In this document: piece after piece, positions 42,750-47,731 of the stretch
How the letters are laid out: the number at the start of each line of letters is the position of its first letter
Position numbering within the stretch: position 1 is the first letter of the stretch
Source of the DNA: Thermobaculum terrenum ATCC BAA-798
Lineage (GTDB): Bacteria; Chloroflexota; Chloroflexia; Thermobaculales; Thermobaculaceae
Reading direction: 5' to 3'
DNA: 64,000 bases
Assembly (NCBI RefSeq): GCF_000025005.1
Contig: NC_013526.1
Span: 868,001 to 932,000 of the forward strand
Notes under the pieces: generated by a model
Databases searched by the model: none
The model's input: the letters and a program-made list of their open reading frames with translations, nothing else
Told to the model about the DNA's origin: nothing
Position numbers and translations under genes: made by a program

Positions 42750-42779
42750 GATAATAGTCATATCTGATAGGAGGTGCCT

Positions 42780-43121
42780 ATGCCCTGGCAGTGGTGGAGA
42801 TCGAATGTAGATGAGGTAGAGGCAAGTGAGGCCGCGGTCAAGCTGAGGGTCGGAGAGGCGCAGGTCGTGGATGTGAGGGAGCCCCACGAATGGCTGCAGG
42901 AGCACGTGCCGGGGTCAAGGCACATCCCGCTGGGAGAGCTCGCCAGCCGAGCTCACGAGCTCTCCCCAAAGCTGCCGGTGTTCACCCTTTGCGCCAGCGG
43001 CCGCAGGAGCAAGGTAGCTGCTGAGATCTTGCAGCGAGCAGGCTATGAGCAAGTAGCGAGCATCAGGGGAGGAATCAAGGCTTGGAAAGCGAATGGCTAC
43101 AGCGTGGTCTCAGGGAGGTAG
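42780..43121 (+). CDS. Single-domain rhodanese (sulfurtransferase)
   Basis: 113 residues. The sulfur-carrying Cys71 lies in TLCASGRRSK, the loop type used by persulfide-relay rhodaneses; D31-V-R-E and GIKAWKANGY end the domain. An AGGAGGTG site precedes ATG 42780. First gene of the sulfur operon, it can pass persulfide sulfur to sulfite (thiosulfate) or to the neighbouring dioxygenase. The TSUP gene starts 3 nt after its stop. Confidence 0.9.
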   Translation: MPWQWWRSNVDEVEASEAAVKLRVGEAQVVDVREPHEWLQEHVPGSRHIPLGELASRAHELSPKLPVFTLCASGRRSKVAAEILQRAGYEQVASIRGGIKAWKANGYSVVSGR

Positions 43122-43124
43122 GCC

Positions 43125-43889
43125 GTGCATACCACCCTGCTGGCGATAGTTTTGGGAGGCGGCGTCGGATTGATGCTTGGCGCTATGGGCGGGGGAGGCT
43201 CCATCTTGGCCGTACCGCTGTTGGTCTACGTGCTTGGGGAGGACCCGCACAGTGCCACCACCACTTCCCTGCTGGTAGTGGGATGGACGGCAGCGGTAGC
43301 AGCCGTCCAGCAGTTGCGCATGGGCAGGACGAGCCCCTGTGCGGGGCTGATCTTCGGCGGCATCGGAGGGGCCAGCGCCCTCCTAGGGGCCTGGCTCAAC
43401 AGGCTGGTATCGGGTCAGGCTTTGATGTGCCTGTTCGCGCTGCTGATGCTGGCGGCCGCCTTCGGCATGTCCCGCAAGCGGCTGCCAGTAGACAAAGAGA
43501 ACGAATTCAAGTGCCAGGATCGAGCTGTGAGGCTGGGCGTGACCGGTGGGGCTGTGGGGGTGCTAACCGGGTTCTTTGGGGTGGGCGGAGGTTTCGTGAT
43601 CCTGCCAGCAATGGTGCTCGCCGCGGATCTGCCGATGAAGCTCGCCGTGGGGACATCCCTCCTGGCGATAGCGTTGCAGGCTGCTTGGGGCGTGGTGGGG
43701 CACCTGGGCTTGGGTACGGTGGCCTGGGGAGTGACATTACCTTTCCTTGTGGGCAGCATCGCCGGAGGATTGGTCGGGGGCAGGCTCGCAGCACTCATAC
43801 CCCCGAGACTCGCCACAAGGGGATTTGCGCTGCTGCTAGCACTGCTGGCTGTGTACCTGCTGTACCGAAACTGCGCAGCATTTATATGA
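43125..43889 (+). CDS. TSUP-family (TauE/SafE) sulfite/organosulfur exporter
   Basis: 254 residues with about eight membrane segments in two pseudo-repeats: LGAMGGGGSILAVPLLVYVLG in the first, GVLTGFFGVGGGFVILPAMVL in the second. In sulfur operons this family exports sulfite or thiosulfate. GTG 43125, 3 nt after the rhodanese stop and without an SD of its own, suggests coupled translation. Two cysteines (in TSPCAG and FKCQDR) sit in loops. Confidence 0.9.
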   Translation: MHTTLLAIVLGGGVGLMLGAMGGGGSILAVPLLVYVLGEDPHSATTTSLLVVGWTAAVAAVQQLRMGRTSPCAGLIFGGIGGASALLGAWLNRLVSGQALMCLFALLMLAAAFGMSRKRLPVDKENEFKCQDRAVRLGVTGGAVGVLTGFFGVGGGFVILPAMVLAADLPMKLAVGTSLLAIALQAAWGVVGHLGLGTVAWGVTLPFLVGSIAGGLVGGRLAALIPPRLATRGFALLLALLAVYLLYRNCAAFI

Positions 43890-43908
43890 TTCCCTGGAAG
43901 GAGGTCTT

Positions 43909-44334
43909 ATGGAGATAGAAGGAGAAGAGCTTAGAAAGCTCCTGCTGCAGATGCAGGCACAGATCTGTCAGACGCTGGCCGATCCCACGCGCCTTGAGCT
44001 GCTCTACCTATTGGGCGAGGGTGAGCGCAGCGTGAAGGACCTCGTGGAGCTGACGGGGCTGCGCCAGAGCAACATCTCCCAGCACCTGGCGCTCATGCGG
44101 GAACGGGGGTTAGTGGTCGCCCGGCGTAGCGGCAACAGCGTCTACTACTCGCTGGCGAACCGCAAGATCCTGGAAGCCTGCAAGCTGACGCGGGAGATCC
44201 TGTTGGAGAGGCTCCGCCGTGAGAGGGTACTGTCCACCCTCTCGGGAACAGGGTGGCCCTCTCAAGAGCCGACGAAAGCAGTATCATTTACCCACAACGA
44301 CGGGGATATGGGGACAAGAGGAGGTAGATCATGA
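43909..44334 (+). CDS. ArsR-family repressor, BigR/SqrR-like persulfide sensor
   Basis: 141 residues. Winged helix (LADPTRLELLYLL, LVELTGLRQSNISQHLALMRE recognition helix, VARRSGNSVYYSL wing). C20 (QICQTLAD) and C91 (LEACKLTREIL) fall in the two helices that hold the persulfide-sensing cysteines of BigR and SqrR; arsenic-type ELCVCDL motif is absent. ATG 43909 follows GGAGG. Its TGA overlaps the next ATG (ATGA). Inferred to repress the operon until reactive sulfur forms a C20-C91 tetrasulfide. Confidence 0.85.
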   Translation: MEIEGEELRKLLLQMQAQICQTLADPTRLELLYLLGEGERSVKDLVELTGLRQSNISQHLALMRERGLVVARRSGNSVYYSLANRKILEACKLTREILLERLRRERVLSTLSGTGWPSQEPTKAVSFTHNDGDMGTRGGRS

Positions 44335-45761
44335 TCCTGAGAATGCTATACAACGACCAGCTGGCGCAGGCCAGCTACCTGGTGGGGTGCCCCGAGTCTG
44401 GAGAGGCGCTCATCGTGGACCCCAACAGGCACGTGGAGCAATACCTAGAGCTGGCCGAGAGGCTGGGGCTGCGCATCACCGCCGTCACCGAGACGCACAT
44501 CCACGCGGACTTTGTGTCGGGCTCACGAGAGCTGGCCGAGGTCACGGGGGCACGTCTGTATCTCTCGGATGAGGGGCCCAGCGAGTGGAAATACCCCTAC
44601 GCCGCGGAGGCGGGCGCGGTGCTGGTGCGCGAGGGCGACGCCTTTGAGCTGGGCAGCGTGCGAGTCGAGGTGATGCATACGCCGGGGCACACCCCCGAGC
44701 ATATCAGCTTCATCGTTACGGACAAGGCACGCGGGAGCGAGCCGCTGGGTGCGTTCACTGGGGACTTCCTATTCGTGGGGGACGTCGGCAGGCCCGACCT
44801 GCTGGAGAAGGCAGCCGGCATAACCGGCACCATGGAGCAGGGCGCTAGGCAGCTTTTCGACTCCATCCAGCGCTTCAGGACCCTGCCCGACCACCTGCAG
44901 ATATGGCCTGCGCACGGTGCGGGCAGCGCCTGTGGTAGGGCACTGGGGGGAGTGCCCCAGAGCACGCTGGGCTACGAGAAGCTGTACAACTGGGCTTTCA
45001 GCACCCAAGACCCTGAGGAGTTCATCCGCCGGGTGCTCGAGGGGCAGCCCGATCCGCCGCGCTACTTCGCGCAGATGAAGCGGGTCAACAAGGAAGGCCC
45101 GGCGATAGCCAGCAAGCTACCAGCGCCTGCGCCTCTGGCCTACGGCGACATCGAGGTAATGCTCCGTCAGGGATTGGTTGTGGACACCCGGCCGGCAGAC
45201 GTCTACAGTCAGGGGTTCATCCCCGGCACGATCAACATCCCCCTGGGGGCATCTTTCCTCACCTGGGCGGGGTGGCTTCTCCCATACGATCGGCCCATAG
45301 CGCTCGTGATCGACAGGGAGAAGCTGGAGCACGCCACGCAGCTCCTGAGGCTGATCGGACTGGACAACCTGCGGGGCTACTGGACTCCAGCCGTGATAGA
45401 CCGTTGGGCAGGCGAGGGTAGGAAGTTGGCCACCTACAGGCGTCTCACGCCCGAGGAGGCTGGGCAGCTCCTCGGGGACGGCGTGTGCGTGGTCGACGTG
45501 CGCTGGGACAGCGAGCGAGAGAAGGGGTACGTGCCGGGCAGCATCCACTTACCGCTGGGCTACCTGGAGGAGCATCTCGAAGAGATACCCACGGACAAAC
45601 CCCTCCTCGTGTACTGTGCCAGCGGTACCCGCTCGGCGATAGCGTCCAGCATCCTCGCTGGGAGGACGCGCGCGCCCGTGATGGACATCAAAGGGGGTTT
45701 CGATGCCTGGAAGGCCACGGGCAATCCCGTGGAGGAGCCCAAGAGCACTACGACCGTGTAA
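44331..45761 (+). CDS. Persulfide dioxygenase-rhodanese fusion (CstB-like)
   Basis: 476 residues. Residues 1-250: ETHE1-type MBL domain with ETHIHADFVSG (the last His of HxHxDH is Phe, as is usual in mononuclear-iron members), HTPGHTPEH and FTGDFLFVGDVGRPDL. Residues 260-350: a rhodanese-like domain without active-site Cys (ALVIDRE in its place). Residues 370-465: an active rhodanese with C429 in VYCASGTRS. It oxidises GSSH-type or protein persulfides to sulfite and the rhodanese can form thiosulfate. ATG 44331 overlaps the repressor stop by 4 bp. Confidence 0.92.
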   Translation: MILRMLYNDQLAQASYLVGCPESGEALIVDPNRHVEQYLELAERLGLRITAVTETHIHADFVSGSRELAEVTGARLYLSDEGPSEWKYPYAAEAGAVLVREGDAFELGSVRVEVMHTPGHTPEHISFIVTDKARGSEPLGAFTGDFLFVGDVGRPDLLEKAAGITGTMEQGARQLFDSIQRFRTLPDHLQIWPAHGAGSACGRALGGVPQSTLGYEKLYNWAFSTQDPEEFIRRVLEGQPDPPRYFAQMKRVNKEGPAIASKLPAPAPLAYGDIEVMLRQGLVVDTRPADVYSQGFIPGTINIPLGASFLTWAGWLLPYDRPIALVIDREKLEHATQLLRLIGLDNLRGYWTPAVIDRWAGEGRKLATYRRLTPEEAGQLLGDGVCVVDVRWDSEREKGYVPGSIHLPLGYLEEHLEEIPTDKPLLVYCASGTRSAIASSILAGRTRAPVMDIKGGFDAWKATGNPVEEPKSTTTV

Positions 45762-46630: not shown

Positions 46631-47035
46631 ATGCACTCTGATGAGCACTACGTGGTCAACTTGTGGTACCCATCGGCTGGGGCTAGGGGACTGTACTTCG
46701 CCCGCGGCAGATTCAGGGCTCAAGACCTCTACCTCGGTGGAACTCTCGCAATAGTAGTGCACTCTCCACCAGAAGTCCTCACTGTCGAGATGTTCACCGA
46801 CTCAGGTAAGCTCGTAGCGCGAGGGCAGGATCTACCGGCTACCGACGACTCCCCCATGGCGCGCCTCACGATCCAGGGCCAGGACGTCCGCAGGGAAGAC
46901 GTATGGCCCAGCGAAGAGGACCTTGGCAGGCTGGTGATCCTTCCTGGGGGAGAGATCGGCAAGCTGGTCAGTTGGTGGCACGCCGATGACCGTTCGGAAT
47001 GGCGCTGGCAGCTGGAGTTCTACAACCATCGTTAG
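46631..47035 (+). CDS. Unknown 134-residue protein in the sulfur operon
   Basis: Not recognised. Soluble, beta-rich (HYVVNLWYPSAGARGLYFAR, LRLVILPGG-type segment, WHADDRSEWRWQLEFY at the end), tryptophan rich, no cysteine and no signal peptide. ATG 46631 has GGAGGTGACC upstream; the Sec-containing gene starts 9 nt after its stop. The operon position implies a link to reactive-sulfur chemistry. Confidence 0.6.
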   Translation: MHSDEHYVVNLWYPSAGARGLYFARGRFRAQDLYLGGTLAIVVHSPPEVLTVEMFTDSGKLVARGQDLPATDDSPMARLTIQGQDVRREDVWPSEEDLGRLVILPGGEIGKLVSWWHADDRSEWRWQLEFYNHR

Positions 47036-47044
47036 GAGGTACCT

Positions 47045-47731
47045 ATGGCAGTGCTATCGGACAGAGACAAGGAGAAGGTGCGCAAGACCTTCGAGGAGAG
47101 GCTCAAGGAGCCAGTCAGCATACAGCTCTTCACCCAGCACGAGTCGCCTCTCGTGCTGCCGGGACACGAATGCGCCACCTGCCGGGAGACACGTGAGCTC
47201 CTAGAAGAGGTGGCCAGCCTCAGCGACAAGATCTCGCTGGAGGTCAAGGACTTCCTGACCGACAGGCAGGAGGCCGAGAGCATGGGGATCGAGCGCATCC
47301 CGGCGATCCTGCTGGACGGCAAAGTAAAGGGGAGGGTGCGGTTCTTTGGTGCGCCATCCGGCTATGAGTTCTCGGTCCTCCTGCAGGATATCGTGGACGC
47401 CTCCAGCGGCGAGCTAGGGCTCTCCGAGGACACCCTGCGGAAGCTGGGGGAGCTGCAGGAAGACCTGCACATACAGGTGTTCACCACCCCCACTTGACCC
47501 TACTGTCCAAGAGCGGCCAGTTTGGCCCACAGGTTGGCGATGGCGAGCGAGCGCATCACCGCCGATGCCGTGGAGGTGAGCGAATACCCAGAGCTCATCA
47601 ACAAGTACAACATTCGCGGTGTACCCAAGATAGTGATCAACGACCAGGTGGAGTTCGAGGGAGCCCTGCCTGAGAAGCAGTTCGTGGAGCGGGTGCTGAG
47701 CGCCGTGCAGCAGGAGGAACAGCAGGGTTGA
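47045..47731 (+). CDS. Protein disulfide oxidoreductase with in-frame TGA (probable selenocysteine, UPYC)
   Basis: 228 codons with one internal TGA (47495-47497, codon 151). Both sides are the same frame and one PDO protein: two thioredoxin folds as in archaeal and thermophile PDO. The N-terminal fold has C43-ATC-C46. The C-terminal fold has FTTPT-[TGA]-PYCPRAA, where relatives have CPYC, then KYNIRGVPKIVIND and FEGALPE. A TTG at 47522 has no SD, so the C-terminal half cannot start independently. Selenocysteine at the nucleophilic position is favoured by the position of the codon and by the hairpin just 3'. A nonsense mutation is the main alternative. AGGAGGT precedes ATG 47045. Confidence 0.82.
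47503..47532 (+). promoter_or_regulatory. Candidate bacterial SECIS hairpin
   Basis: Lower stem CTGT (47503-47506) with ACAG (47529-47532), 8/1-nt internal asymmetry, upper stem GGCCA (47515-47519) with TGGCC (47523-47527), loop GTT (47520-47522) beginning with G. The loop starts 22 nt after the TGA. Distance, short apical stem and G in the first loop position fall within the described bacterial SECIS range. The pairing was found by eye. Confidence 0.5.

What the first reader, a model, noticed from the sequence alone, without database searches (positions are those of the whole stretch)
47045..47731. Probable selenocysteine (UPYC) in a protein disulfide oxidoreductase
Seen: the two open stretches around TGA 47495-47497 are in the same frame, with no gap, and join into one two-fold thioredoxin protein. 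The TGA is exactly the first Cys codon of the C-terminal CPYC site (TPT-TGA-PYC-PRAA). Known: Sec normally replaces the nucleophilic Cys of UxxC redox sites. Inference: a Sec-PDO. The downstream half keeps conserved family motifs, arguing against decay.
Basis: partly seen in the sequence, partly recalled or inferred. Interest (0 to 1): 0.95.

Follow-up and report, generated by a model that had tools for sequence, protein, structure and literature searches.

The report
Selenocysteine protein disulfide oxidoreductase (UPYC)
The gene really does appear to encode a selenium-containing version of a two-domain thioredoxin-like enzyme, with selenocysteine written as a TGA codon in its catalytic site; this type of selenoprotein was already recognised, so it is a well-supported new example rather than a new kind.

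Summary
One frame runs from ATG 47045 to the stop at 47729-47731, broken only by TGA 47495-47497, which takes the place of the first Cys of the C-terminal CPYC site of a protein disulfide oxidoreductase (PDO; NCBIfam TIGR02187, 265 bits against a cut-off of 185). The selenocysteine reading is strongly supported. The same 3.10-Mb genome has tRNA-Sec(UCA), selA, selB and a selD that itself carries Sec. In Chloroflexota, 54 distinct PDO genes (this one included) carry a single in-frame TGA, all at this one alignment column; 51 others have TGC or TGT there. A bacterial SECIS-type hairpin follows the TGA (47515-47527, GGCC-AGTTT-GGCC). The published model is met by 54/54 TGA genes and 16/51 Cys genes, and the base of the stem covaries between two wobble positions. 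The tree needs at least 11 Sec/Cys switches. Decay, sequencing error and general stop-codon reassignment are disfavoured. However, Sec members of this family were reported in 2004-2006 ('homolog of AhpF N-terminal domain', UxxC), and NCBI names the model PDO_seleno_TRX: a new member of a known kind. Not shown: selenium incorporation, activity, redox partner. This gene's hairpin is not exceptional by folding energy alone; its support is comparative.

The parts
47045..47731 (+). Sec-containing protein disulfide oxidoreductase gene, 228 aa with residue 151 = Sec; stop TGA 47729-47731
   Evidence: TIGR02187 265 bits
47171..47182 (+). N-terminal redox site CATC (residues 43-46)
   Evidence: C43 and C46 invariant among the 25 homologues of alignment A2, though lost in some wider relatives
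47495..47497 (+). TGA codon read as selenocysteine (U151), first residue of the C-terminal UPYC site
   Evidence: TGA in 54 distinct genes, TGC/TGT in 51, same column
47504..47506 (+). Resolving cysteine C154 of UPYC
   Evidence: invariant in alignment A2
47515..47527 (+). bSECIS-type hairpin GGCC-AGTTT-GGCC (an inner A-T pair may close a 3-nt GTT loop); loop begins 21-22 nt after the TGA
   Evidence: homologues show wobble-wobble covariation at 47515/47527
47035..47039 (+). Shine-Dalgarno-like GGAGG
   Evidence: seen directly in the sequence

Best explanation
The gene encodes a cytoplasmic PDO, two fused thioredoxin folds with a CATC site in the N-terminal fold and a UPYC site in the C-terminal fold. 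UGA 47495 is decoded as selenocysteine by SelB and Sec-tRNA(UCA), directed by the hairpin just downstream. The Sec would act as the attacking selenolate of the C-terminal site, with C154 resolving, in dithiol/disulfide exchange; electrons probably come from the genome's thioredoxin reductase. Shown here: the reading frame, family, column identity, Sec machinery, hairpin covariation and predicted fold. Inferred: actual Sec insertion, catalytic role, redox partner and direction (reductase rather than isomerase).
For: Frame and family. Own-genome machinery: tRNA-Sec (71.2 bits, anticodon UCA by ARAGORN), SelB (320.6 bits, 345.7 with its second stretch; cut-off 242), SelA (505.6 bits), SelD (365.7 bits) with its own in-frame TGA in CAGUAAKLGPG. 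Column: 54 distinct TGA genes, every TGA at this position and no other, against 51 Cys genes. RNA: the published bSECIS model is met by 54/54 TGA and 16/51 Cys genes (Fisher p 8e-16). In 36 genes of the window's hairpin type, pair 21-33, both wobble positions, is G-C, C-G, A-U, U-G or G-U in 35 of 36, against 20.4 expected (0/500 shuffles reach the covariation score). selA occurs in 27 of 27 good-quality Sec-PDO genomes against 224 of 284 across the sampled phylum. Structure: pLDDT 91.3 with two thioredoxin folds; nearest solved structures are PDOs (TM 0.86-0.90). In S. solfataricus PDO the C-terminal site has the fundamental role in thiol-transferase activity (PMC7465337), and that is the site holding Sec here. 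One strong thioredoxin reductase in the genome.
Against: No protein-level evidence. For this gene alone the local folding energy is not exceptional (z +0.45 against synonymous recoding; z -0.41 for 30 nt); hairpin support comes from the family. Related sequences inflate the covariation and Fisher statistics. Rfam reported no SECIS match.
Confidence: 0.96

Rival explanations
1. Pseudogene: a cysteine codon mutated to TGA and the gene is decaying.
For: By standard rules the annotated product would be a 150-aa truncated protein.
Against: Only this one stop, no frameshift; the downstream half is conserved and scores on its own. 53 other genes carry TGA at the same column, with conserved protein around it.
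Confidence: 0.01
2. Sequencing or assembly error (TGC or TGT read as TGA).
For: Nothing specific.
Against: The same TGA occurs in 53 other genes from many assemblies, together with a bSECIS-type hairpin met by far fewer Cys forms.
Confidence: 0.005
3. UGA is reassigned or read through generally (for example as Trp) instead of being recoded as Sec.
For: The frame is open across the UGA.
Against: TGA is the terminator of this same gene. The aligned residue is Cys in the homologues without TGA, never Trp. Dedicated tRNA-Sec, SelA, SelB and SelD are present.
Confidence: 0.01
4. Dual product: UGA terminates much of the time, so a 150-aa N-terminal-fold protein and a full-length Sec protein are both functional.
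For: Bacterial UGA recoding is usually less than fully efficient (general knowledge); the N-terminal fold has its own CATC site.
Against: No sign of selection for a separate short product. Some relatives with TGA have lost the N-terminal CxxC (L097, L101-L103, L106, L107), leaving the Sec site as the only obvious redox site.
Confidence: 0.05

Closest known systems
Sec-containing 'homolog of AhpF N-terminal domain' / Grx-like protein, TIGR02187, UxxC (ABB15282.1; Carboxydothermus hydrogenoformans and Symbiobacterium thermophilum; PMC1794560, PMC9312934, PMC13188914)
   Same: Same family (TIGR02187), same UxxC motif type, Sec predicted by comparative genomics
   Different: Here in a Chloroflexota genome; 54 such genes in the sampled phylum, with the RNA element compared across them. 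The 2006 table listed only 2 members.
Pyrococcus furiosus and Aquifex PDO (1a8l, 1j08, 2ayt, 2ywm)
   Same: Two thioredoxin folds with end-to-end sequence and structure match
   Different: The C-terminal site is CPYC in the Pyrococcus proteins and UPYC here
AhpF N-terminal domain (1hyu, 1zyn, 4o5q)
   Same: Same double thioredoxin-like fold
   Different: Not fused to a flavoprotein reductase here; far below the AhpF model cut-off
Sec-containing thioredoxin and glutaredoxin (UxxC)
   Same: Same chemical idea: Sec as the first residue of a thioredoxin-fold CxxC
   Different: Single-domain proteins, other families

Membership tests
Protein disulfide oxidoreductase (TIGR02187) | Score above the curated cut-off over the full model length | tested here: met
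   265 bits against 185, model positions 2-208 of 209
Protein disulfide oxidoreductase (TIGR02187) | Two thioredoxin folds, each with a CxxC-type site | tested here: met
   CATC and UPYC; AF2 model pLDDT 91.3 with PDO structures as top matches
Protein disulfide oxidoreductase (TIGR02187) | Disulfide reductase / isomerase activity | not testable with these tools
   Needs purified protein
Bacterial selenoprotein | In-frame TGA aligned with a catalytic Cys of homologues, with conserved sequence on both sides | tested here: met
Bacterial selenoprotein | Complete Sec machinery in the genome (selC, selA, selB, selD) | tested here: met
Bacterial selenoprotein | bSECIS: stem of 4 bp or more, 3-9 nt apical loop with G (then G/U) in the first two positions, 16-37 nt after UGA | tested here: met
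   GGCC-AGTTT-GGCC at 47515-47527; covariation across the family. Own folding energy not exceptional; the model's free-energy criterion was not applied.
Bacterial selenoprotein | Selenium in the protein (75Se labelling or mass spectrometry) | not testable with these tools
   Wet-lab experiment
AhpF (TIGR03140) | Full-length AhpF including the flavoprotein reductase part, over the cut-off | tested here: not met
   70.1 bits against 502.9

The most novel reading that the evidence does not exclude
In Chloroflexota the Sec form of PDO is about as common as the Cys form, and the two have interchanged at least 11 times. Since the hairpin lies inside the coding sequence, switching to Sec appears to have forced the eighth residue after Sec to Arg/Ser (codons AGG/AGT only) in the main hairpin type. 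The RNA signal would thus have shaped the protein's active-site helix, and gain and loss of Sec could be followed step by step in one family.
Probability: 0.5. Interest if true: 0.5.

Novelty: new member of a known kind. Interest (0 to 1): 0.33.

Why it matters
Standard annotation would cut this enzyme to 150 aa and lose its main catalytic site. The case ties selenium to disulfide exchange in Chloroflexota. With many closely related Sec and Cys versions available (for example Cys in L055 against Sec in L056, L057 and L059, same genus), it offers a natural test of what selenium adds to a PDO.

Tried and rejected
Rfam with permissive thresholds gave no SECIS hit. Minimum folding energy of 48 nt after the codon does not separate Sec from Cys genes (means -15.1 and -14.8); synonymous recoding does at the family level (mean z -1.39 against -0.47, p 3e-7) but not for this gene (z +0.45). 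My strict coding of the bSECIS model (four or more contiguous pairs, three of them G-C) misses the bulged E. coli fdhF element, so it is not a general detector. The single genome-contig scan with one protein found only one distant relative.

Full report
Observation. The stretch 47045-47731 is a single open frame broken only by TGA 47495-47497. The TGA is codon 151, the first residue of a C-terminal xPYC site; the gene ends at its own TGA, 47729-47731. GGAGG lies five bases before the ATG. The downstream 69 residues match Thioredoxin_3 without help from the upstream part, and joining the halves raises the score. The joined protein is a full-length protein disulfide oxidoreductase by NCBIfam TIGR02187 (265 bits, cut-off 185), by sequence match to solved PDOs, and by predicted structure (pLDDT 91.3, two thioredoxin folds; top matches Aquifex and Pyrococcus PDOs with TM 0.86-0.90).

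Machinery. The window lies in a genome of 3,101,581 bases in two contigs. The size and two-replicon layout fit my memory of Thermobaculum terrenum, which NCBI places in Chloroflexota, but the identity was not verified. The genome has tRNA-Sec with anticodon UCA, SelA, SelB with its C-terminal region, and SelD, which itself contains an in-frame TGA at the usual Sec position (CAGUAAKLGPG). So at least one other selenoprotein is predicted in this genome.

Homologues. Of 400 Chloroflexota genomes, 115 have a PDO at E <= 1e-20, many with exactly one in-frame TGA. I fetched and aligned 107 loci. After removing a duplicate and one poor match, 54 distinct genes, the window's own included, have TGA at the column of codon 151 and nowhere else in the domain; 51 have TGC or TGT there. 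The neighbourhood VF.TPT[UC]P[YHW]CP is widely shared. A tree built without this column needs at least 11 changes between Sec and Cys. The window's gene groups with Sec forms from other Chloroflexota families (L078 and the f24 group) rather than with same-class genomes, which may mean transfer between lineages; this was not tested further. A Cys paralogue (CPQC/CPYC) sits at C2:179617-180249 of the same genome. All 27 good-quality Sec-PDO genomes have selA, against 224 of 284 in the sampled phylum. Because 54 of 61 good-quality Cys-PDO genomes also have selA, selA alone does not predict which form is used.

The RNA signal. [quoted passage not shown] The window has GGCC-AGTTT-GGCC at 47515-47527. 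With one coded version of the model applied to both sets, 54/54 TGA genes and 16/51 Cys genes pass. In the 36 genes of the window's hairpin type (defined by GCC-AG at positions 22-26 counted from the TGA), codon 25-27 is always AGG or AGT, never AGA or AGC. The base pair at the foot of the stem joins two wobble positions (21 and 33; in the window 47515 and 47527) and appears as G-C, C-G, A-U, U-G or G-U in 35 of 36, where independent choice predicts 20.4. Shuffled and slid controls do not reach the observed covariation score. In the Cys set the same two positions pair in 29 of 51, not clearly above the 24.2 expected for unlinked positions (p 0.09). This points to selection on the RNA rather than on the protein, with the caveat that the sequences are related to each other. 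The other 17 TGA genes use a different hairpin with a CGTG- or GTGC-type loop 17-18 nt after the TGA. The loop AGGTT of many homologues resembles AGGTC(T) of the E. coli fdhF element, whose sequence was confirmed in E. coli genomes. For the window's own sequence, folding energy alone is unremarkable, so its hairpin rests on comparison.

Mechanism. Shown: frame, family, column, machinery, covarying hairpin, predicted fold. From literature: in S. [quoted passage not shown] Inferred: here the selenolate of U151 attacks substrate disulfides and C154 resolves the selenylsulfide, with the one strong thioredoxin reductase of the genome as the likely electron donor. In several relatives the N-terminal CxxC is lost while Sec is kept, which fits the C-terminal site being the main one.

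Novelty. Sec in this family is not new. PMC1794560 lists two Sec 'homologs of AhpF, amino-terminal domain' (Carboxydothermus hydrogenoformans, Symbiobacterium thermophilum). PMC9312934 and PMC13188914 list it under TIGR02187 with motif UxxC, citing the 2004 prokaryotic selenoproteome paper, and NCBI's model name is PDO_seleno_TRX. I found no paper on Thermobaculum selenoproteins in the library searched. What is added is a well-documented member, the abundance of Sec-PDO in Chloroflexota, and evidence for its SECIS. Hence new member of a known kind, with moderate interest.

Noticed in passing
window 42774-45761: Sulfur-related gene run upstream: rhodanese, TauE/SafE sulfite exporter, ArsR-type regulator, metallo-beta-lactamase with C-terminal rhodanese (persulfide-dioxygenase-like), then DUF302. 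Whether the Sec-PDO is functionally linked to it is unknown.
   Followed up: partly
G000:C1:499779-500726 (L018): selD of the same genome has an in-frame TGA at its active-site position (CAGUAAKLGPG), so it is itself a predicted selenoprotein.
   Followed up: yes
G000:C2:179617-180249 (L092): A second, Cys-only PDO paralogue (CPQC/CPYC) in the same genome; long branch, uncertain position in the tree.
   Followed up: partly
L097, L101-L103, L106, L107: Sec-PDOs whose N-terminal CxxC has been lost (SQTA, TDNG/TDSG, SATG/STTG), leaving the Sec site as the only obvious redox site.
   Followed up: no
L105, L108, L111: Sec-PDOs with URYC instead of UP[YH]C at the active site.
   Followed up: no
window 46631-47035: DUF7712 protein of unknown function directly upstream of the Sec-PDO, ending 9 bases before its ATG; probably co-transcribed.
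   Followed up: no
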